From Kryptolebias marmoratus (taxonomy: Eukaryota > Chordata > Actinopteri > Cyprinodontiformes > Rivulidae): a stretch of 64,000 nucleotides of DNA. The first letter of the stretch is position 1, and each line of letters begins with the position of its first letter. The position numbers and the translations under genes are program-made. The DNA is taken from assembly GCF_001649575.2 (NCBI RefSeq), contig NC_051441.1:14861415-14925414 (forward strand), given 5' to 3'. Positions 19,901 through 48,200 of the stretch are shown in pieces. The notes under the pieces are model-generated. The model made no database searches and was not told the origin of the DNA. It worked only from the letters and a program-made list of their open reading frames with translations.

Positions 19901-22900
19901 ACAATGGTGGCAAAACATGTTGACTGTTTCCACGCAGCTGTTCTTAAACTCTGAAACAAGTACTAACTAATCAAGGAAGTTGCAAAGGGGGAAACATAGG
20001 AAGGTGGATTAAGGAAAACATCAAGGGCAGAAAACTAAAAATCATTAAGGCCTAGAAATGAGAAATGTACAACAGAGGACATAAAAAACAAGAAGAAATA
20101 AAAGTCAGTGCTCGTGAGAAACTGGTACTCAAATATACAAACAAATGTTTAAAAAAAAAGGGTACATTGGAAGCAGTCATGGACCGATTAAATGAACAAG
20201 ACTTTTGTTTTTGAGTCATGTATCTTGAATATAAAAGGAGGTGATGCAGGAACTTGTTTTGGTGCAGGTCTGGTAAAAAAAAAAACCTGAAAACTTGTTT
20301 TTCATAGTTGCCAAAGATAAGATAAGATGTAGTTCAATGATGATGCAGTGAGTTTTTGTCCATGATCATACGCTTCACCAGTGCAGTTAGGACTTTTCCT
20401 CTTAACTCCATGACACAGACAGCAAACAGTTCAGATGTGTTAGAAACTTTATTGTGGAAAATGGAAACTAAAGGTGTATTTTGCAGGTCGGATCTGTTGG
20501 CTTCAAGGAATTAAAAATGTTCTAAAACCTCAAGTTGGTTCAATAAAATACTGATTGTTTTATGTTTCTTGATATCGTTTGTATGTAATTAATTCTATAT
20601 ATTTTCCAAAACATTTGATAAAAAGTCCAACAGATTTGGTTATTTTTCAGTGTGTATCTGTCTGGGGGGGAACTGCTTCCTAAACTGTACAACTTGTCCA
20701 TCCTTTCCAGATCTTCCCAAGCCTAAATGGAGACAAGCATAACAAACGGTACATTATGTTGTTTGGAAAAGCGGGCATGGGAAAAACCACGCTGATCAAG
20801 AAGTTGTGTCTTGACTGGTCTAAAGACAGCATCCCTCAGTTTGACTTTGTCTTCTTATTAGACGGCAAGAAGCTCACTTTAACAGAGCCTGCCTATAGCC
20901 TTCAGACACTCCTGCTCAGCCTTTCCTCCTTTGCGCCACCCTACACAGACCCCGGGGAAGTCTACAGTCAAATCCTTGCAGCCCCTAAACGTGTGCTTAT
21001 CATTTTTGATGGGTTTGATGAGTTGCGGGACTACGAAATGCTGCTCCAGACTCTGGAAAAAGACTTGGTAACGTCGCTGCAGAGAAACGGCAAGGCGCAG
21101 AGCTTCACGGTAAAGCAGCTGTTTTCGGCCATCCTTCAGAGGGTCTTACTTCCAGGGTGCACTCTTCTGCTCGCCACTCGGCCAAGGGGCAACGCCAGTC
21201 AGTTACTGCGGCGCACAGACAGCCTCCTGGAGGTGTGCGGCTTCAGTCCAACAAATGTGGAAATGTACTTGTCGAAGTACTTCACTGATCCTACGCTCAG
21301 GGAATCTGCTGTGGACTGCCTAAGAGCTAGCAGCTATCTACAACTCCTCTGCTGGAACCCTGGGCTCTGCCACTTGGTGTGCACGGTTCTAGAGCAGTCC
21401 AAAAGTTCTGATGCCTTACCAAGAACTCTAACCGGGCTCTGCCATCAAGTGCTGTGCCTAAAACTGGAAAAAGACAGAGGAAGCACACAGATGCCTGGTG
21501 AAACTCAAGAGCAATCTGTGCAAGAAGCCCTAACAGAAATCTCAAACAATTCTCAAGTGAGGAAGGGTCGTAAAAACAATCAGACAAAGTCCAGAAGTGC
21601 GCGCCAGAGTGCCCTTCGCTCCCGGAGAGCCAAGAAAGCAAAAGGACAAGAGAAAGAGCGAGATGAAGTGGACGAGGAGAATGTTTTTGAGGACAATGAC
21701 AGAAAAGGAGACAAAGAGTTGCTGTCCCAGCTGAGCTCTTTGGCCTGGGAGGGAGTCAAATCCAACTCCTCGATCATTCCCGCAGAAAAAGCCGTGTCTG
21801 CCAAACTCAAGGCATTCGGCTTTAGGACGGGGCTGCTGCTCGCTCATCGCCTGAGAACGACTGTCGCAGGAGATGATGGGGAGGGAGGAGGACAAGATGA
21901 CAATAATGAGGAAGGAGAAAGTAAAGAAAACGGAGGAGACGTTAACCTCGTTGATAATTGTGACGACGGCATCTTGTTGTGGGCCAACCCTTTCCTGCAG
22001 AGTTACATCGCTGCCGTCCATTTGTCTTTATCAAGGTAAAGAGAACTTGTTTGTAAAAAAATAAATAACAAAACTAACAAAAGATTAAAAAAGAAAATGC
22101 TCCATGCAGCCCTTGATTCAGAAAGAGAAACCTTTTCTCATCAGCCAGTGTTGTTAGACTTAAAACAAGAGCATATCTTTTACATCTCCCTTTTTTTCCA
22201 GCTTTCACTTTCAGTATTGTTTCTGCTTTTTCCTGACCAACTCTTCTGCTATTTTCCCCCAGGACTGTCCCCGATCGTTCCTTTCTCCAGACTCTCCCTT
22301 TCCAGACGACTGTCAAAGGCCGTCGGAAGCCTAAAAGGGAGGAGCTCGAGCTCACCCAGCGCTTTGCCGTCGGCCTGTTGTTCTACAACAGGACAGAACT
22401 CCAGAGGCTCATTTCATACAAAGAGACTGTTGTCAGAGACATGTTGGTCAGCAAGCAGGCATTAGCGACAAAACACTTGGAAGGTCTTTCGATCAGTGAG
22501 CTGAGCCCAGCTCAGGTCCTGGAGGCCTGCAACTATGTGTATGAAGCCCAATTTACGCCCAAAGGGGGCGGAGAAAATCCTGCCAGCCGGATGTTGACGC
22601 ATCTGGCAGCCAATCTGCCAGAATTCCTGACATTTTGTGGAGTTTCCCTCAGCCCACCAGATGTGTTCACCGTGCAGAATGTTCTCGAGCAGGGTGGAGC
22701 TGAAGGTAGAAGTTTCTGTTTGGATCTGGAGGACTCTGGGATACAGATCTGTGGACTTAGGGCTTTGATGAGCCTCAACAACATCAACACATACAGGTAA
22801 AATTCAGTTTGGGTTTGGTATCAAAACTGTCCAGTAATACCAATTTTATTAAGGTTCATCTGAGTTTGATTATTGGACATATTCATATTCCAAATCAATG

Positions 22901-30717: not shown

Positions 30718-31870
<1,153 letters not shown>

Positions 31871-34135
31871 ATGTTCGGTCGGTCACGGAGCTGGGTTGGA
31901 GGACAAGGAAAAACGAAAAACATCCACTCCTTGGATCATTTGAAGTGAGTAGTTAGCACCTAGGCTAATATTAGCCTCTTATTGGTAACCAGTTAAACAC
32001 GACGTTTACATTAGCTCGGTTAATAACGGTTAGAAAACACTGCATTAACAGATATGTTGATTGTTAAGGTAACAGTGAACTTGTAGTTTTAATATTTCTG
32101 TAATACCTGGTAAGATGCGATGCTAGCTAGCGTGTTACGTTGACAGTAGTCGGGGCGCTTAAACAATAACAATGTCATTCACTAATAAATATCAGCTATT
32201 TAGCTTCTGGGCACTAATACCTTTAGAGTCCTTACATGTGTTTTCACTTATTCTGGAGAATAAGACCACGAAGAAGGTTGAACATTAGGTGAAAGTGTTC
32301 TGCTTTAGGGTTTACGCAGTGTCTAAGGTCCCACTACAACAGGTGCCTCAAATTAAGACTGATTAAATGTCAGTCAAACTTAGTCTACAGGTGTTGAATG
32401 TAATGTTGGTAGAGATTTCTCATAACCCAGGTACATTCTAAATTACATTAGCCTTGTATCTAGAGCTTTGCTGACTATACTTGTACTGCTGTGTTTGCAT
32501 ATATTAAAAAATGTTTTATTTCGTCTCTCATACGTACCTTTTTCATAAATCAGATATATGTACCACATTCTGACCAAAAACACCACGGTGACGGACCACA
32601 ACAGAAACCTTCTAGTGGAGACCATCCGCACCATCACGGAGATCCTCATCTGGGGGGACCAGAATGACAGCTCTGTGTTTGAGTAAGTCCCAATCAGTGG
32701 TTGCATGATCAGTCCATCAGATGCAGCCATAAAACTCCAGATGTGCACCCTTGTATGGAAAGCAAATCAACATCTGTCCTTTATACCTAATTTTATTTTT
32801 TTTTTAATCCCTCTAGTTATGGCATTGCTCATTCTTCATTGATGCAGTTGATGATATGCAGCAGAAAACTTGGGCTTTAAAGTATTTAGCTAGAATTTCC
32901 TTGTAATTTCTGGCTGTATAAATAATGAGTTATGATGAATACAACATGTCCACAGCTAAGTCGAGGACTTTTAAGCTATTCATTTTAACCACTAGCCTCC
33001 AGATCGTTTCAAAAGGCAGATCTTCTTTGAACAAATAGGTTTATGGATAAGTTTGTCACAAGCTAAGGTTGTTGTTTCTCTGCACATGTGTATGTCATCA
33101 GCTTTTTCCTGGAGAAGAACATGTTTGTCTTCTTCTTGAACATCCTGCGTCAGAAGTCTGGTCGCTATGTCTGTGTTCAGCTCCTCCAGACCCTCAACAT
33201 ACTGTTTGAAAACATCAGCCATGAGACTTCCTTGTGTAAGTAATGGTACTAATTTATGGGTTGTTGGTGTCATTTTGAACATTGTAAACAAAAAAACAGA
33301 TTGCAAGTTTGTGTTTTTGTTGTTGGTTTTATCAGAGTGTTACAAAATTCTACATGTTGCAAGCAGCAGATTTGATGTAATCTTACCTTTTAGTATTATG
33401 AGTTTTTTGTTTTATTTATTTTAATAAAGTGCAGTGTGTATTTGATAAAAGTCGGCCTTGCTGATAACAGGTTTGTTACAATCATTTAAAATGGTTTTTT
33501 TTTTCTCTTTGACCTCATTTCTTATTTTCAGATGATCGTTAATTCTGTCCTTCCAGGTTTTAATAAGTTCAGCAGTTCTTTACGTAATTTTTAGCAAATC
33601 TTTTCTTTTTGTAACCCGATGCAGAGCAATAATTTCAGTCTTCTGAAATGAGGCAGCATCTTCACCTCAACCACAGGATGTGTGTGTTTGGTTGTTCAGG
33701 AAATCAGAAGCTGCTCTCTGTATCAGATAGGCTTAAAAAAATTTGTTGTCAGCTGAAACATAATGATCTCTACAAAACCTTTCTGTCAGAAGGTTTCTGC
33801 CTGTTTTAGTAATCTCTCTTTTCTTTAGCAATCTCTTCAATTGTTCACTGCACAGGAGCTCATGGTGCATTTTGTTTACTTGCTTCTTGACAAACTCATC
33901 AGATATATGTATTGTTTAACTCCCGACTGAGTGGGCCCTTCAGATACTCGGCAGGACTCCTTTGTCATTTTTTTGAAACGCAGTTAGTGAAACAGTTCAG
34001 TGAATGTGGTGGTGTGTGTGCCAGTAGAGTGTGGGTGCTGTAAGAACATCAGGTTTAAATGTGAATCATAAAATATTTTTAAAGGACTCTCTTCTTTGCT
34101 GCAGTTAGTCTTTTCCTGAATCTGAGAAGCTTTTG

Positions 34136-34187
<52 letters not shown>

Positions 34188-36216
34188 AGAAAGACGTTAA
34201 TCTGATAAGAGCTGCTGAGAGAAACCATCCACTCAGCCTGAGCTCTTAACTCACCAAATGATTGGATGTCAGTTTAAAAAAGAAGAACTAAGTCTAAAAT
34301 GTAAAATGTTGTTTCACTTAAGTTATTCTGATCAAGTAACACTGTTTTGGTTGACTTTATGTTCTCATTTGTTTACAGATTATCTGTTGTCGAACAACCA
34401 CGTCAACTCGATCATCGTGCACAAATTCGACTTCTCGGACGAAGAGATCATGGCTTACTACATTTCCTTCCTCAAGACCCTGTCACTCAAGCTTAACAAC
34501 CACACTGTGCACTTTTTCTACAACGAGGTGAGGCCACAGAGAGATCACTGGTACATGAGAGAAAATACAGAAAGACGCAATGGTGAAATAAATAAGTTAT
34601 GAGCTTTACCTGAAAGTATTAAGAACTTTCACAGTAAGATCAGCTGGAAATAAAAAAAATACTTCAACTAAGTTTTTTTTTCACAAATATAGTTTGAAGT
34701 TGCACAAAGCTGTCAGTTTGTGTAGTAGATTTCCTTTACTGATTAGTTAGTTTTATTAAAATATCTAGTTAATAGTTCTTGCACTTTGTTAACCTTTTTT
34801 GATTGTGTCCCTTTTCTAATGTGCTGCACATTCCTGTGAAGGTTGGCTGATTTTTGCCTATTTAACAGACAATTCTGCAAGAAGCATCTTTCTCTTTAAC
34901 CCTTAATGCAAACATTTCAGTTATCGTTGGTAAAAATAATGAAGATCCACTTAATTTACAAGACATTTTCTCCTCAGCTGTGTTTAGGAGATACAGTTTT
35001 AATTTAGAAAATCCTGGTTGTGTTTTGTTTGGATATGTGGTAATCATTGATAAACCGAAAGGATCCTGACCGCTTTCACAGTTAATGTTGTAACTTTCCA
35101 GTTGTTCAGCTTCATCTTTGTATTTGTCTGTGTGCACCGGGGAAAGTTATTGGTGTAATGTCAATGGTAGCTGTGCTCCTGAAGCCAAAACCACACCCAG
35201 TTTAAAAGATGTGAAAGTATTTTTATGTATGAGGAGGACCTGTTTTTTGTACAGTGCAATATTGACAGTATATGCACAACACTGTAGTATTTTTAAAATG
35301 ATTTTTAACATTATTCTATGTACACAAACAACTAAAGTAAAAGCTTTTACTTTAACAAAAGCTTTTAAAAATTTACAGAACCCTGTAATTAACTTTTTTT
35401 TCCCCCCACTATTATTTTATAAGAAAATAATTTGCAGTAAAATTAGAATTTTAAGCTTATTTTCCTCTAGATGGCGCCATTGGATTGCTGTTGTCTTTTC
35501 CTGTTTTAAACTTAAGTCACATTTTTATTTTTTTTAGAGATGAATTACAAGTTCTTGGTTTGGGTTTGGTTTCAGGTTCAAATTTCTTCATTTGCTGTGA
35601 CTTCAGGATGGTTTTTAAACCTCCACGTGATTCGTTGGAGGTCTCAGTAACTGAGGAAATGTGAGGAGGAGGATCAGGCACAGAGAGAGAGGGCTTGTTT
35701 GTTAATTAGCAGCTTGAGCTGTATTATTACATGTTAGGCATTAATAAAGTAACCTTTTTGGTCAATATGTTTCAGTTACAGACTTTTAAATTTTAGCTTC
35801 TAAAAGATAACTCCGTTTGTAGTTTAATGCCCATAAAAATCATTTTGTGTATTTCTTTTTCACCTAAAAACATCCATCCCTTTTTTTCTTGTTTTAAATA
35901 TTACCTGGATTTTTAACATTTTTAGGACATTTTTATTACTCGAGGAATGGAAGTATTTGGATTTTACTTTTACTAAATGTTAAGCAAATATAGGACTGTC
36001 CAACATTTCTGTCCAGCTGCTTCCTTTCTCTCTCTGTTGTCACTTGCGGCCTGAGTTCGGCGGTTCAATGCCTTGCTCACCGGCGCCTCCTCTCTGTCTC
36101 CTACACACAGCACACTAATGACTTTGCCCTGTACACCGAAGCCATTAAGTTTTTCAACCACCCAGAAAGCATGGTCCGCATTGCAGTCCGCACCATCACG
36201 CTCAACGTCTACAAAG
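31871..36216 (+). CDS. clec16a: CLEC16A exons 1-5: N terminus and FPL domain
   Basis: Exons 31871-31944, 32554-32682, 33102-33235, 34379-34527 and 36111-36216. Exon 2 reads [12 protein letters not shown] and [12 protein letters not shown]. Exon 3 reads [16 protein letters not shown]. Exon 4 reads [17 protein letters not shown]. Exon 5 reads [15 protein letters not shown]. Together they form the FPL domain (about residues 48-200), the most conserved part, shared with plant and insect homologues. Intron 4 (34528-36110) and intron 5 (36217-37989) are non-coding apart from a short transposon-like frame at 36622-36804. Confidence 0.96.
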
Positions 36217-39200
36217 GTGAGTGCCGCCGCGCACAAGCATGGGCACACGCAAACCGCACACACGCTCCTGAACTGCTTACCGCCTCTTTTTGTGCTTCCT
36301 TCTTTTTTCTGCTTATTATCCTTCTGCATGACTAACAGGTAACAAGTATGCAGCCTGTTAGATTTTATTTTAGCCTTTGATGTTGTGTTTTTTTGTATTT
36401 TGTGATTTATTGTAACCAGCTGATTTTGATAGAGTTCAGATTCTTCAGCCAGAACATCTGGTCCTTGTGAGAAATCTAGTTAATATGTGCTAAAAGATGA
36501 TTAGATGCATAAAATGAACTTCTAGTATCCAGCAAATCCATCTTAAAGCATAAAAGCTGTCAAGGTACGGCTATTGACAGATATTGAGTGAGTAAAATAA
36601 TCCGGTTGGTGGGGGAGAACAATGGCACTGAAATCGACTGATAAATCGCAGCATATAAATCTCTCTTCCTCTGAAAAGAAACAACGATTAAAAGCTGTAA
36701 GGACAAGAGTCGACAGAAGCAGAGTCGTTGTGACTGAGGAAATCAAGCAGTGGAGGGCGTTAAAGCAAACCTCGTGTGCAAATGCCAAACTTTTGATTGC
36801 CTAATTCAGTTGTAAACAGAAGTGATGAATATTTGTTTTTTTTAACTCATTTTTTACAAAAGCCTTGATGAGTTTAAGTTGAATTAACCTGAAATCATTT
36901 AATGATATAGAAATTGTGTTAGAAGCATGAAAGGTCAGCTATCATGGCTTTAAGAAGCAGAATTCTGTTAAAGTAGAACAACTCGTCCCTGAACTGGGAA
37001 CTTTGCATGACAATAAGAAGATAAAAATCTGAATAGCTAAACTATGCTAAATATTTCTACAGTAACGATAAGTCAAAATAGATTAGAATTAGTGTTTACA
37101 TCAAGATATAATGGGGCTCAGTCTGCAGGAGACAAACTGGATTTCCTACTTTCATTTTTGGAGAACTTTTATTTTAAAAACTCAAACATTTCTCCTTCAT
37201 TGTACATTTTAGGACAAGTTTTTACAGCATAGTCGGTTTCAGTAAATGTGAGTGTTAGCTCAGACTTTCTTCTATAGCTAAACTAACTATAATGCATTTT
37301 TTTTGTGTAGGGATTGTGTTGCTTTCCTGGTCATAGGCTATGATATAAAAAAAAAAGTTTGTCAAGCAAGGAAGTTCCAGTTTATTGCAGCAACTCTGAC
37401 AGATTTATTTGTTTTGTTCCCCTTCACTGTCTCAGAACTGTCATGCTATCATTTAGAGCATCAGTGTCACAAGTGGCCATCTAACCCATTGCATTAATAC
37501 TTGCTTTGAACACTTACTAGTTAGTTTTAAGACTTTTGAAATCCTATGACACTAAAAATGAGTGAATATATTGCAGTGAAGGCTCCTGTTGCTTCATGAT
37601 GTTGAACTTTGTATCTGATTGATGCTTCCTACTGATTCCTTGTTCATGCACTGCAACAAATGACAACCTGGAAAACGGTTTTATTCAGCAGCGAGGCTAA
37701 TTTATGTTGATTCATGCCGAGTTTCTGCTTACACGCGACACGGTTTAAAAGAAAAACAAAAAAACACACTGACGTTGAAACTCCTTTTCCAAGTGTGCCA
37801 TTGTTTGCAGTTTTTTGTCAAGATGCCTGCGTGACCCTTCCCAACGTCCACCCCTCCCCCTCCACAGCCGCTCCCTTTACTCACATTAACCCTGTGTCTG
37901 TTTCCCCCCCTCTCCAACCACTCCTCCTCCTCTTCCTCTTCTTGTCTCTCCTCCTCCTCCTTCTACGCGCCCCATCTGCCTAACTACAGTTTCATGTAAG
38001 TTGGTTCCATTCATTCAGTCTTTTTCTGTGGGCTGGGTATCTAAGCAACGTGTTGAGTTTCTGTTCACACGCAGCATTCACAAAAAGATGGCGCAGCTCT
38101 AAAAGATGCGTTCATTGGCTGTAGATTTGTTCTGTGGCTTTGATTGATTTAGCTCAAATCTGAAGCCCTCTTCAGCCCTTGCTTGTTGTTACCCAGCCCC
38201 GCCTCTTCTTAATGGTGTAATTGTTGTAAATATCTGGATATGTGTATTCTTGTAAATCATTGTTCATGTTATCACTTACCTGCATACATGCAGAGAAAAA
38301 CCTGCATGCCACTGCAATTATTTTCTTCACCTAATTTATTTGGCATGCATTAATTTAGCTGAGCTCCTCTGGTGATGAGTTTGATTGTTTCAGTCTTTAT
38401 TACCATTATTTAGTTTGTGATCCCTCTCTGTTAGTCCTTTGATTCAGCTTTTTATACACTTAGTTTGTAGAGACCACAGATAGTACCCACACTGTTGTTT
38501 AGTGAAGGCTAATAGTGTTTTTCAGACACCAAGAGTGGACTACAGAGTCACTTCTGTCTGATATTTTAGGATTTTGTATTTTTGTATTGTTTTCGGACTT
38601 CTGATCATTTAGATCCTTACAAATATATTCGTTTATCAGATTTCTCTGTGTGAAAGCAAGTAAAGCTTTAAACCGGGATTGCACTGTATTATTAGTATGT
38701 AAGTTTTTGATAAAGAAAACACTAAAAAAATTGTTCACTATAACCATTATCACCACCAGTTAGAACACCAAATTTAAGTCAAATTCTGCATCCTGACCTT
38801 AAACACGTGTTTTTGTTTTTTCACATTTATATTACTTCCCTACACCTGCAAACACTCTTATGTCTGAAATATATATTTCTGTGTTTATATCATAATGATT
38901 AGACAGGTTATTCTTTTGAAAAGTGACTTATTTTGTTTGCTTTTTGTTTAGAATGGTTTTGTCATGTTAAGTTGCCACATTTGGGATTTTTTTTCCAGGG
39001 GTCACACGGTGTGTGTACAGATGAGTAACTCTGTGTATGTGTAGAAAAATTACTTTTATGAATGTCTTTGGTAACAATTCCCATCTCTTGACCCCCCTGG
39101 TCTTCTTTCCAGTGGATAACCAGCACATGCTACACTACATTCGAGACAAAACGGCGGTCCCGTATTTCAGTAACTTGGTCTGGTTTATCGGCAGCCATGT

Positions 39201-42200
39201 CATCGAACTGGACAAGTGTGTGCAGACGGATGAAGAGTAAGTCCTCTGAGTCCTCCTCACTGTAGCCTCTAGGGGGCAATGTTGTCTTAGGTTTATAAAC
39301 TTCACCCTGCTGATTATTAATAAATACACAATTTGCATTGCGGTAACTACATTTTTATTTTTATTGCCAGCAGCCAAAAGGGCTTTGAACAACTAGATAG
39401 ATTTTAATGAACCTTTGAGGAGGAAAAAAAACCTTTTGGATGTACTACTACATTTGAAAAATGTTTGGAGTCATTCAAATTCAAGATGGTCACCACTGCT
39501 AATCAACATTAGCCAACACAAAAATGGTTATGACTCAATTTTACAGGTTTTGAACTGTAGCTGAAAGTTATGCACAGCATTCTGTGAACTCGATATCACA
39601 GGAGATTACATAAAATATGCATTACTTAAAAACTGCTTTAAAGATTGCTAGTCCTTTTTAATTGTAAATAAAATTTTGACCAGATATAAATGTAACTATT
39701 TTTTTAATCCATATCAGTGTTTGTCTCTTTGCCTCTGACTTCTGTGTTTCAGGCATAAGAACAGAGGAAAGTTGAGTGACCTGGTAGCAGAGCACCTTGA
39801 CCATCTGCACTACCTGAACGACATCCTCATCATCAACTGTGAATTCCTGAACGACGTGTTAACCGATCACCTCCTCAATCGTCTCTTTCTGCCCCTCTAT
39901 GTCTACTCTCTGGTCATTCCTGAGACGGTACGTTACCCTCTTAAACACTCGTGAACAACTTGGTTTATGCTGATTATTCACAGATTCAAAGTGGGGTGGG
40001 CTTGGGTTGTGTTTTTACAATCATTTTATTTTACATACTGTGTGTTTTTACCTAAACTAATACCTAAAGAGCGTGTCAAACTGTGCATCAGTGTACTGGT
40101 TTGTCTTCTGTACCTTCTCTGTTTCTTATTGTGTGTTATATTCCCTCAAATTACTCATTTTAACAGAGGAAATAGTCCAAGAACAAGGTTGTTTTAGAAA
40201 TGACACAATCTGACTGACACTTTACTTTTAAATGCTTTTTTTTTGGTCTGGCCTTAGGTAATTACAGTAAGTTACTAATCTCAGAGTTTTCAAACTTCCT
40301 CAAGATGACAGAAGTCTCATAGTGAAACATTGATTTTCATTTAAGTTACTTAATTTTAGATCTTTACAGGAGCTCAAATCTAGAGTGATGTGTTCATGTG
40401 CAGAAGTTGAGGTCTGACCTCTATTCAACTTTATTACCTTTTTTCCAATGCCGTTATACACAGAAACTTCAGAAATTATAGTGACTATGATCAATAAATG
40501 TATTTAAAGAAACATCCACCTATTTGTTTCCAGCTACTTATTTCTGCTCGGGTCTCAGAGGTAACAGGTCAGGGAGTGAAGCCCAGACATCTCTCCAGCT
40601 CCTCTTCCCAGACCGGGGAGAGGATATTTATCATCCTTTCAGCAGGTTCTGGGTCTTCCACATTGTCTCCTCCCAGAAGGATGTGCCCAAAACCCCTCCA
40701 AGGAGATGCGTATGGTGTAGATTCTCAGTCACCCAGGACATGGTGATCACTGCTGTTAAAAGCTTTGAACTCTGCTCATTTTAGTTTGGATTTAATTCGC
40801 TCCTCCAATGAGAAGTGAACCACCTCAGCTGACTCTTTTTGATGCGGAGGATCAGCGGCTCTACTCCGAGCTCCTCCTGGATGACCGAGCTACTCACACC
40901 GTCTTTAAGGCTGAGCCCTGCCACCCTACAGAGGAAACTCATTTTAGCTGTTTGTATGCAGGATCTCATATTTTCTGTCCCAATCATCACAGGGTGAGGG
41001 TCAGAACGTAGAAGAACCACAAAACTCACCCTCATTACTACAACTTAAGCCCCAGTCCATCAGTCCATCTCCCGCTCCATCCTGCTGTCACTTGTAAACA
41101 AGACTCCCTGATACTTGAACTCTGTTTGAGGCAGAAACTCTCCATAAAACTGATGGGAGTTCACCGCCCTTTTCTGGTCAAGAACCTGACTCGAATCGAG
41201 TTTCTTTTGCAAAACAGTAACCGCAAGTTGTTGTGCAAGCTGATAATAGTCAATTCATTTAATCATGAGATGTTCTCAAAACCACAAAAATAATTCTCAA
41301 ATAGTATCCTCATGTTTCGTCTTATTTACAATGTTCTGTTCCTTTTTTATTTATTTTTTAGTCTGAAGAGCGGAGGATCAGCCCTCAGGTTTCCCTCTAT
41401 CTGCTGTCTCAGGTAAGCAACACACACACACACACACACACACACACTCCATACCACCATCAGCAATCACCAGAGTATGGCAGTATTTATGTTTTATTAT
41501 GTGTTTTTAAGTCTGCTGAACCTGTAGGCTCTGTTTTATTGAAAAGTTGTTTTTTATCTCATTAATTCTTTTAAAACAAAAGAGGCAAATTACTTCCATA
41601 ACCTGCCTGAAAGTGTGATTTAAGGAGTCAAATGTACAAACATTATCAGTTTAGTTTAAATGGGAACAGATTGTTCTGTGTCTGTATTATGGGCCTTGTC
41701 ACTTTTAAAGTGTATCTAGTCTAGTGTCTTTTAAGTAGACTAAATAATAATCTAAATTTGACCCTAAAAAAAGAACAGTTGTAAGTTTTCAGATGTTTTT
41801 TTTTCTTTAGATTTTTCTCTACTGTAGTTTTTAAAGATCATTAAGATTTATGTCTTTATAGTTTTTTGGAACATGTGTGGTTATGGTTTTTGTTGGCTGT
41901 GTGTGGATTGTTTAGGGGAGGAGAAACATTTTGAATCCTGTCTTTGCGTGTGTCTTTTTCAGGTGTTTCTAATTATCCACTATCAGCCTCTGGTCAACGC
42001 CCTCGCAGATGTTATTCTCAATGGAGACCTTTCAGTCTTCAGTTCCCAGTCAGACATGCAAAGTTCACACAAAAACACGGTATGTCTACATGTAAACACA
42101 CACACACGCACTACCTTCTGTTTGTTTCAGCTGTTCCCTTTTCAGGGGCCGCCACAGTGAGTCATCCTCCTCCATCTGACTCTGTCTTCTGTGTCCTCCG

Positions 42201-45200: not shown

Positions 45201-48200
45201 TTTTATACGTCTTGTAAGTACTGATTTGAATAAGGAATAACATTTTTTTTTTAAAAGTCTGACACCTTCAGTTTTTGCTGATCTTACATTTTACCAGATG
45301 TGTGCAGGTCGCGTCTCAGATTAGGCCGCATGTTCTGTAAAATGTTGCTCGCCTCATCTCAGCTGTTTGTGGTTCCCACTCGGCTTGTTATAGCTCATTA
45401 CGGTCGAGTGTTTAAACAACCTCAGTTTAACCCAAATCTTGCCTCAGTCCAGTAAGTCATAGCACTCAATATGGAAACTGAACATGAGGGTGGGGGGAGG
45501 GGGGGACCAAACAAATTGTAACTAACAAGAAGTTCTGCAACCTGCTGCTTACAAATTTGTGTGAGCTGATTCTTGTTTGAGGTGTAATAAACCAAGCTGT
45601 GTTACAGGTTTATAGTTCAGATTTGCGAAATAACTCTGTGTCGTCATATATCATTTGTGTTTTCATGCTGAGCTAATCTTAACTTTTACGTCTTCAGCCA
45701 AATGTTCTGACTTCACACCAATCTTGTTATAAATAATCTCTTTTTAGTTCCTTTCTGAGTCATTTTGAGCATTTTAATTTGACTGGTAGCTAATTATTAG
45801 AATTTGCAGAAGTAGTAGTAGTAGTTACCGTCACAGTTATTTAGTCTGACTGTAAGTCAGTGTTGTCATCAGTGCTCAGCTTCTTATCATTTACCAGCTG
45901 TTTCCTGGAGGGTTTGGTGTGTGTGTGGTAAGATTTTGACAACTATCTCTGAATTGTGGGTTGCTTATAGTTGCTGGATTTACGGAAATGGTCGTGCATG
46001 TAGTTTTGCATCAGCTGGTCATTTTTCCCATGTTCTGTGCAAGAATACATCAAGGAGGAAGTGGTTTGTTCTTAACGGACTTTGATCAGCATCGACAGTC
46101 AGAAACATTTACGAGAACTGATTAGCGTGTAGAGGTTTTTGTTGCCTTTTTTATTTTTTTTGTCCTGGTATATGTTGGTTTTTTTTTTTTTTTTTTTTTT
46201 TTTTGCATGTACGTTTGTCCTTATAAGGTTTGGTTAACTTACTGTCTAGAAACAGGAAAGTTAGTCACTTCTTAGAAAGGAAACCATAATCATCCGACCA
46301 TTTTTCTTCTCACTTCCATCTAGTGCCTGGTTTGCATATTCGGCACATACTGTGATCTGCAGTTATGTATTATAAGTCACTGCTGCAGAACAAAACAGCC
46401 ATTTGCTGTTTTTTTTTGTTGTTGTTTTTGAAAGCACAAGATGACATTTGAGTTCATCATTGAGTAAAAAAAAGAAAATAATAAATCATTTTAACATCAT
46501 TAATTTCTGTCTTTTGTCCCCTTTGCTCTTCTGTCCACCTTGTTTGTTTGTTTTTTTTACCACAGCATGTCAGCGCAGGAGGAGTCCGCCGGTTCATCAA
46601 ACCTCCTGAGTCTCTGGAGCGATCCCTGGAGATGTCCCGGCACCGAGGCCGAAAGAGAACACAAAAAAGGCCAAACTATAAAAACCTGGGGGAGGAAGAT
46701 GACGAAAGAGCAGGGGAAGGTGGCAGCAGTGGCGGAGGGGAGCTGGAGGAGGGCTGGGATGATGACGGCGTCAGAGGAGGAGAGAGGGAGAAGGGAAAAG
46801 GTACAGAGGGAATAGGAGGAGGAAGTGGGAGTTCTAAGGGAAGCAGAGCGAGTGGGGAGATGGCGGAAGGTGAGTGTGTGTCTCGTTAGACGCAGCGGTA
46901 CAGGACTTTGTTTGAGTGTTGTTTACACCCATCAGTCAAATTTGTGGTCTCATGAACATTGCTTTCCAAGTGGTCACTGCAGCAGCAGCAGCACTCATCT
47001 GCAAACAAAAGAGCTAAAATCTTAAAATGCACGAATCAGTCGGCTGGTTATCAGAATCTGGGTTTTTTTTTTGGCTTGACGGGTGTCCAACTGATCTGAA
47101 ACTTAAAAATCAGTATTTTTTTTTGTTTTTTGTTCATTTGTTTGTGTTGTCCTAGTCTGTAAACACACTATAATTGATGGTTAAATCACACCAGCAATAA
47201 CCTGCCCTTCATGCAGAAGTTTTAACTGAGTGAAGAAGACTCAAAGTTAGCTATTTATAATATCTGCAACATGTTTAAAAGTTCTTTAAAAAGTCAGTGG
47301 CAGTGCAGGAGGCGCACAATACTACTAAAAAACAAAAAGTATTTACTCTAGAGGTTTGTCTGCAGCTCATTTAACTGCACAGTAACATATGGGTTTATAT
47401 TTTGTAGTTAGATACCAGCTGCCACGTTACCAGGTGATCTATTTTGCATAGATCTGAAACCTAAGTCAGTTTATTTTCTTTTTTTTTTTTTTCAAATATT
47501 ATGTTGGACACTGCTGCAATTTATTTTAAATTCAGACAAAAACAGATTGTCTTGTGATGTGAAAAAAAAACTATAAAAAATGTTAAGTCTCTCATAGTCT
47601 TAGTAAAATAGCCTTTATTCATGAACCTAAAGGATATTATTTGTACATTTCCAGTGACAGACAGAAGGCCTTTTCACAAAGTCAGTCTTTAAAGATACCT
47701 GTAGCCGTTTGGTTTTGTGATGCTGGCTCATTTGGTGATTAACAAAGGAAATGTGAAGCGTAACTCAGCAATGTTGATGTGGTTGTAAAACCTGTGTTGT
47801 CATCAGTACGTCACATGTCGAGCGGCTCACCCTTGGTGGTTCAGAGGTTTAAAAGTGGTGGGTTGACTTCAACCAGGAAACATTTTTATTATGAACACAT
47901 AGTCAAATGTTCAAGCAGAAACTACAAAAAGTATTTTTTCTTCTAGAGAAAAATTGGTATTGGCAGGTCAGAGCTTCACAAAAAACCTGAAATCTGAATC
48001 AGCCTAAAAAACTGACTGGTGCATCTCTAATAAAAACACAACATGGCTTCATTTTTATGAACAGCAATGTTTTAAATTGCACACGTGCTTAGCTTTGCTT
48101 TTCATTTGAGCGAATAATTGAGCAATAACACGACTGTCTCTTGAATGCATCTGCTGCTGAAATGTTTCTATTCAGCATCTTTATTAGCAGAAACCAAAAA

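What the first reader, a model, noticed from the sequence alone, without database searches (positions are those of the whole stretch)
37990..37995. Six-nucleotide microexon in CLEC16A
Tttcat is flanked by ideal splice sites. It restores the V-S-L-D-N wording that I recall from mammals, while skipping gives V-D-N in frame. A very long CT tract and tgc motifs just upstream of the acceptor are hallmarks of SRRM4-dependent neural microexons. Gene predictors usually miss exons this small, and this one would add a potential phosphosite (Ser) to an autophagy regulator near the FPL domain.
Basis: partly seen in the sequence, partly recalled or inferred. Interest (0 to 1): 0.8.

Follow-up and report, generated by a model that had tools for sequence, protein, structure and literature searches.

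The report
Two-codon cassette exon in fish CLEC16A
A six-base exon that adds two amino acids to the autophagy protein CLEC16A is really present in this fish gene, but it is an exon already annotated as optional in humans and many fish; its suggested nerve-cell control is plausible from the sequence but unproven.

Summary
TTTCAT at 37990-37995 is confirmed as exon 6 of a 22-exon GT-AG model of CLEC16A (best match Kryptolebias marmoratus; the gene runs off the window). Inclusion reads NVYKVSLDNQ, skipping NVYKVDNQ, both in frame. The exon is not new: human exon 6 encodes aa 201-202, missing in isoform 2. Of 240 listed vertebrate proteins, 87 carry VSLDN, 143 the short form and 10 other spellings; human and 15 of 69 named fish species show both. 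All 120 listed invertebrate proteins (insects, one sea urchin, some unnamed) have the short length, so the insert was probably gained on the vertebrate line. The SRRM3/4 idea is plausible: the acceptor is third weakest of 21 in the gene, with the gene's strongest acceptor-side pyrimidine tract, a 120-base AG-free zone and one UGC between tract and AG, as published for eMIC exons. But UGC is not diagnostic, comparable tracts occur elsewhere in the window, and no expression data were available. Strictly neural use is doubtful: both human long isoforms were amplified from blood cells, exon 6 content not reported. The phosphosite is speculation. Verdict: real, conserved, already annotated; the neural switch is untested.

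The parts
36111..36216 (+). CLEC16A exon 5 (ends ...AAC GTC TAC AAA G; donor GTGAGT)
   Evidence: the model minus SL is identical to the first 893 residues of P0001, Kryptolebias CLEC16A
37851..37964 (+). 114-nt pyrimidine tract upstream of the microexon (positions -139 to -26)
   Evidence: segment score 50; best of the other 20 acceptors of the gene 23; 83% pyrimidine over 100 nt, highest of 21. Elsewhere in the window one + strand tract (88) and one - strand tract (59) score higher
37868..37987 (+). AG-free zone before the acceptor AG
   Evidence: AG-to-AG distance 122, rank 5 of 4016 on the + strand of the window
37886..37890 (+). branch-point-like TTAAC at -104 (candidate distant branch point)
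   Evidence: consensus match only; function inferred
37977..37979 (+). single TGC (UGC) at -13 to -11, between pyrimidine tract and acceptor AG
   Evidence: 7 of 21 acceptors of the gene have TGC in the last 20 nt, so not diagnostic alone
37990..37995 (+). six-nucleotide microexon (exon 6), TTTCAT; adds Ser-Leu between Val198 and Asp201 of the included model
37996..38001 (+). 5' splice site GTAAGT
   Evidence: own-gene matrix score 8.72, 6th strongest of 22 donors by leave-one-out
39113..39236 (+). CLEC16A exon 7 (TG GAT AAC CAG ...)

Best explanation
This is CLEC16A exon 6, a six-nucleotide cassette microexon shared by teleosts and mammals. The short splice joins exons 5 and 7 and gives NVYKVDNQ, the length also seen in insects and sea urchin. 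Inclusion inserts Ser-Leu directly after the FPL domain without changing frame. Shown: the DNA, the frame, and annotated entries of both forms in human and fish. Inferred: the exon is often skipped because it is tiny and its weak 3' splice site is separated from a long PTB-type pyrimidine tract; where SRRM3/SRRM4 (eMIC proteins) are present, most likely neurons and endocrine cells, the UGC beside the acceptor helps recruit the 3' splice-site machinery and inclusion rises. The insert then changes the surface at the FPL/CLEC16A_C junction and tunes a partner contact of this endosome/mitophagy scaffold. Roughly: real alternative exon 0.98; SRRM3/4-enhanced in neural tissue 0.55; functional effect through partner binding 0.3. 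(The 0.55 was 0.6 before the acceptor ranking was corrected.)
For: Junction reading and gene model (P0001 begins with the model minus SL, 893 residues). 87 of 240 listed vertebrate relatives have VSLDN, 143 the short form, 10 other. Fundulus heteroclitus X4 and X6 differ only by SL, and 15 of 69 named fish species show both forms (119 of the 120 entries, the unnamed P0031 left out). Human: 4 included and 5 skipped of 9 listed entries. Papers: human exon 6 = aa 201-202, missing in isoform 2 (PMC3634488, passages); a 6-bp in-frame segment is absent in V2 (PMC4519850, section 5 read). All 120 listed invertebrate relatives have the short length. Layout: third weakest of 21 acceptors, strongest pyrimidine tract and longest AG-free zone among the 21, UGC near the 3' splice site, as described for eMIC exons (PMC8797185, passages) and protrudin exon L (PMC5247714, passages).
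Against: No RNA data for any tissue. Full-length products of human V1 (RefSeq form with the 6-bp segment) and V2 (without it) were both amplified from PBMCs, so inclusion may not be neural-restricted; the section read does not report exon 6 content of the products. TGC also lies within 20 nt of 6 of the other 20 acceptors. Two other acceptors of the gene score weaker (the first comparison, kept the other sites in the matrix and so exaggerated the contrast). Pyrimidine tracts of similar or larger score occur elsewhere in the window. All 5 vertebrate entries of source 'lgn' are skip forms, and the one Kryptolebias entry listed is a skip form. No paper linking CLEC16A to microexons or SRRM4 was found.
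Confidence: 0.7

Rival explanations
1. A broadly used, roughly constant cassette exon: a weak acceptor gives a mixture of both isoforms in all tissues, with no neural programme and little functional consequence.
For: Both human long isoforms, which differ in RefSeq at the 6-bp segment, were amplified from PBMCs and are said to be expressed in blood, thymus and HEK293T (PMC3634488 passages). Many annotated models carry either form. UGC is not special to this acceptor, nor is acceptor weakness unique in the gene.
Against: Identical Ser-Leu in fish and mammals (of the 88 listed entries reading VSLDN or VSVDN, 87 are VSLDN) suggests constraint. The combination of weak acceptor, 114-nt pyrimidine tract and 122-nt AG interval stands out within the gene.
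Confidence: 0.35
2. Chance splice-site look-alike; the six bases are intronic.
For: YAG-N6-GTRAG alone is not rare (266 of 2000 shuffles; 2 sites in the window against 2.18 expected for YAGN6GTRAGT).
Against: The same two residues sit at the same junction in 87 of 240 listed vertebrate proteins, and human exon 6 is annotated there.
Confidence: 0.02

Closest known systems
Human CLEC16A exon 6 (aa 201-202; present in NM_015226/Q2KHT3-1, absent in NM_001243403/Q2KHT3-2)
   Same: Same gene, same exon number, same frame and the same two residues Ser-Leu after Val (passages)
   Different: Fish residue numbers are 199-200.
SRRM3/SRRM4 (eMIC)-dependent neural microexons, e.g. protrudin exon L
   Same: Weak 3' splice site, long pyrimidine tract, long AG-free zone, UGC between tract and exon, short in-frame length
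   Different: No tissue or factor-dependence data; single UGC; CLEC16A was not named as a target in any paper seen through the searches (main texts only, partly capped listings; supplements not searchable)

Membership tests
CLEC16A exon 6 (orthologous exon) | Located between the exons ending NVYK-V and starting DNQ, in frame, encoding Ser-Leu | tested here: met
CLEC16A exon 6 (orthologous exon) | Optional: both included and skipped products exist | tested here: met
   annotated entries of both kinds in 15 of 69 named fish species and in human; mostly predicted entries, transcript support not inspected. For K. marmoratus itself only one entry, a skip form standing for a cluster of 5 sequences, was listed (P0001)
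SRRM3/4-dependent neural microexon | Short (3-27 or 3-30 nt), frame-preserving | tested here: met
   6 nt, in frame
SRRM3/4-dependent neural microexon | Weak 3' splice site, long pyrimidine tract, long AG exclusion zone | tested here: met
   third weakest of 21 acceptors, tract and AG-free zone largest of the 21; definition from PMC8797185 passages
SRRM3/4-dependent neural microexon | UGC motif close to the 3' splice site | tested here: inconclusive
   one UGC at -13; 7 of 21 acceptors of the gene have one within 20 nt
SRRM3/4-dependent neural microexon | Higher inclusion in neural tissue and loss on SRRM3/4 depletion | not testable with these tools
   no RNA-seq collection is held
Phosphosite-bearing regulatory insert | Ser199 phosphorylated in vivo | not testable with these tools

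The most novel reading that the evidence does not exclude
CLEC16A, a human autoimmunity and neurodegeneration gene, carries a vertebrate-gained, SRRM3/4-driven two-residue switch that converts the ancestral short FPL junction into a Ser-Leu-extended neural/endocrine form with different partner binding, so that tissues affected in CLEC16A disease express different CLEC16A proteins.
Probability: 0.33. Interest if true: 0.55.

Novelty: already known. Interest (0 to 1): 0.3.

Why it matters
The exon itself is existing annotation. If its inclusion is under the neural microexon programme, constructs made from the 21-exon and the 24-exon human cDNA would differ at a second, overlooked place, and studies that compare 'V1' and 'V2' by qPCR of their 3' ends (as in PMC4519850) would not see it. 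The short invertebrate form makes a simple gain-of-microexon story that can be tested directly in zebrafish.

Tried and rejected
Considered and rejected: chance intronic look-alike (the same two residues are in orthologues). Odd junction spellings as further isoforms: KGELDN in Dicentrarchus is exactly what a 6-nt extension of exon 5 into the intron would give in this window, so it, and by analogy the gibbon KGKLDN entries, look like misplaced microexons; KAPVDN, KGSPVDN, VLLSPVDN, KVNNQ and VSVDN were left unexplained. My first claim that the acceptor is the weakest of the gene fell when each site was scored leave-one-out: it is third weakest. RBFOX motif TGCATG: 54 in the window against 43.29 expected, not informative. 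RNA structure at the exon: z -0.99. Rfam 0 matches at gathering scores, no tRNA, no sequence relative among solved structures at E up to 1, NCBIfam 0.

Led nowhere: comparison of the intron with other vertebrates was not possible because no vertebrate DNA collection is offered; genome contigs gave no relative. Of the CLEC16A splicing papers (49 found, 25 listed) I read passages of five: one states the exon 6 fact, others treat exons 11 and 22 or name CLEC16A in passing. CLEC16A with FPL domain found one paper. A multi-term search for CLEC16A regulators returned 924 papers, none of the 12 listed holding CLEC16A, and likewise the last search (10 listed of 33).

Limits: the fish and mammal queries carried Ser-Leu and the insect-like query did not, and only the best 120 hits were listed of 2124, 2276 and 2181, so included:skipped ratios are not unbiased. 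Vertebrates outside percomorph-type fish and mammals, and chordates such as lancelet, were not examined.

Full report
What is there. The window holds, on the + strand, a CLEC16A gene that starts at 31871 and runs off the end. I placed 22 exons by hand (31871-63721, 895 residues); the 21 introns between them, and the last exon's donor, follow GT-AG. Without the microexon the model is identical to the first 893 residues of P0001, listed as Kryptolebias marmoratus CLEC16A isoform X2, so the window is that fish or something very close. DEXI lies upstream on the minus strand (Pfam Dexa_ind) and a NACHT-encoding ORF further upstream; this fits the CIITA-DEXI-CLEC16A order given for human in a figure legend of PMC10179542 (passage). 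That the NACHT gene is CIITA is from recall.

The six bases. TTTCAT at 37990-37995 follows ...TCTGCCTAACTACAG and precedes GTAAGT. Exon 5 leaves one base of a codon (G); inclusion gives GTT TCA TTG GAT (V S L D) and skipping GTG GAT (V D). In the model the insert is residues 199-200. Pfam FPL ends at 196 and CLEC16A_C begins at 243, so the insert lies immediately after the FPL domain.

It is an annotated exon. A review, of which I read passages, says human CLEC16A has 24 exons, that isoform Q2KHT3-2 lacks aa 201-202 encoded by exon 6, and that FPL spans aa 51-199 (PMC3634488). Section 5 of PMC4519850 reports that V2 lacks a 6-bp and a 48-bp in-frame segment relative to V1, and that full-length V1 and V2 were amplified from PBMCs. 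In the human entries found here Ser-Leu is residues 201-202. In the fish search the 120 listed hits (of 2124) comprise 66 with VDN, 48 with VSLDN (3 of them with an extra 12-residue piece) and 6 others. In the mammal search the 120 listed (of 2276) comprise 77 short, 39 VSLDN and 4 others. Of 69 named fish species (119 of the 120 entries; the unnamed P0031 left out), 32 show the included form, 49 the short form, 15 both and 3 only odd spellings. Fundulus heteroclitus X4 and X6 differ by Ser-Leu alone. Human has both (4 included, 5 skipped of 9 listed). For K. marmoratus only one entry, a skip form, was listed.

Origin. With an insect-like query all 120 listed hits (of 2181; one sea urchin, the other named ones insects, some unnamed) have a junction of the skip length. 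The short form is therefore probably ancestral and the exon a gain on the line to bony vertebrates. Caveat: the query itself lacked the insert, and lancelet, tunicate, lamprey and shark were not seen.

Control signals. With a matrix from the gene's own sites, each site scored leave-one-out, the microexon acceptor (3.47) is third weakest of 21 (exons 12 and 8 are weaker), and its donor (8.72) is 6th strongest of 22. An earlier comparison left only exon 6 out of the matrix and so wrongly made it the weakest. The pyrimidine tract (37851-37964) scores 50 against at most 23 for the other 20 acceptors; elsewhere in the window a + strand tract scores 88 and a - strand tract 59, so such tracts are uncommon, not unique. 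The AG-to-AG distance of 122 is the largest of the 21 acceptors and ranks 5th of 4016 on the + strand of the window. The single TGC lies at -13 to -11, between tract and AG. A passage of PMC8797185 lists weak 3' splice sites, long AG exclusion zones, UGC near the 3' splice site, long pyrimidine tracts and strong branch points for eMIC exons in flies, and says mammalian targets share these, except the weak 5' splice sites and the strong downstream branch point. Passages of PMC5247714 place the functional UGC between tract and exon. A passage of PMC12626420 uses UGC plus UC repeat as the canonical layout in zebrafish. The match is good, but UGC alone is weak evidence: 7 of 21 acceptors here have it within 20 nt. 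The branch point is uncertain: TTAAC at -104 is well placed for a distant branch, whereas CTAAC at -10 is probably too close to the AG to be used (inference).

Chance. YAG-N6-GTRAG occurs in 266 of 2000 dinucleotide shuffles of the intron; together with at least 83% pyrimidine over 100 nt, a threshold set at the observed value, in 0 of 2000. No other frame-keeping candidate of 3-30 nt in the gene span reaches both of its splice scores, and none does on the reverse strand.

Mechanism. Shown: an in-frame optional exon with a conserved product. Inferred: often skipped because of its size, weak acceptor and PTB-type tract, and promoted by SRRM3/4 where these are present. The protein effect, a changed surface next to the FPL domain, is inference; no solved relative was found by sequence and the structure jobs failed. 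Against a strictly neural exon stands the amplification of both human long isoforms from blood cells, though exon 6 content was not reported there.

Literature. No held paper contains both CLEC16A and microexon. CLEC16A with micro-exon, and CLEC16A with SRRM4, gave one review in which the terms stand in unrelated passages. Two zebrafish microexon papers do not hold the word clec16a in their main text (PMC12626420; PMC12626424). Two further listings showed none with CLEC16A (12 of 924 and 10 of 33 papers listed). Supplementary tables and splicing databases could not be searched, so a genome-wide microexon list may well include it.

Verdict. Observation confirmed; the exon is already known; the neural SRRM3/4 reading is a reasonable, testable and unproven addition.

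Noticed in passing
window 37645-37680: Three Cyprinodon CLEC16A models (P0059-P0061) carry an extra 12-residue piece ending CALQQMTTWKT-V before SLDN. The window holds the near-identical sequence (HALQQMTTWKT) in the intron about 310 nt upstream of the microexon, but with no AG just before it: a conserved intronic piece or a lineage-specific cassette exon.
   Followed up: partly
window 36217-36222: Extending exon 5 by six bases gives KGELDN, exactly the junction in the Dicentrarchus model P0076; gibbon models show KGKLDN. Annotation pipelines appear to misplace the microexon there.
   Followed up: partly
P0259/P0311, P0262/P0319, P0284/P0341 (Hymenoptera), residue 160: Insect CLEC16A isoform pairs differ by a 3-residue insert NEV near the junction equivalent to exons 4/5, possibly a tandem splice site.
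   Followed up: no
window 46566-46869 (exon 11): Fundulus X5 and X4 differ by a 24-residue piece in the E/G-rich stretch corresponding to the end of exon 11 and by a 46-residue piece nearer the C-terminus; in human, competing 5' splice sites of exon 11 lie 48 nt apart (PMC10325915 passage).
   Followed up: no
window 20756-22039 (+) and 30718-31023 (-): NACHT-domain ORF and a DEXI ORF upstream of CLEC16A, consistent with the CIITA-DEXI-CLEC16A order of mammals.
   Followed up: partly
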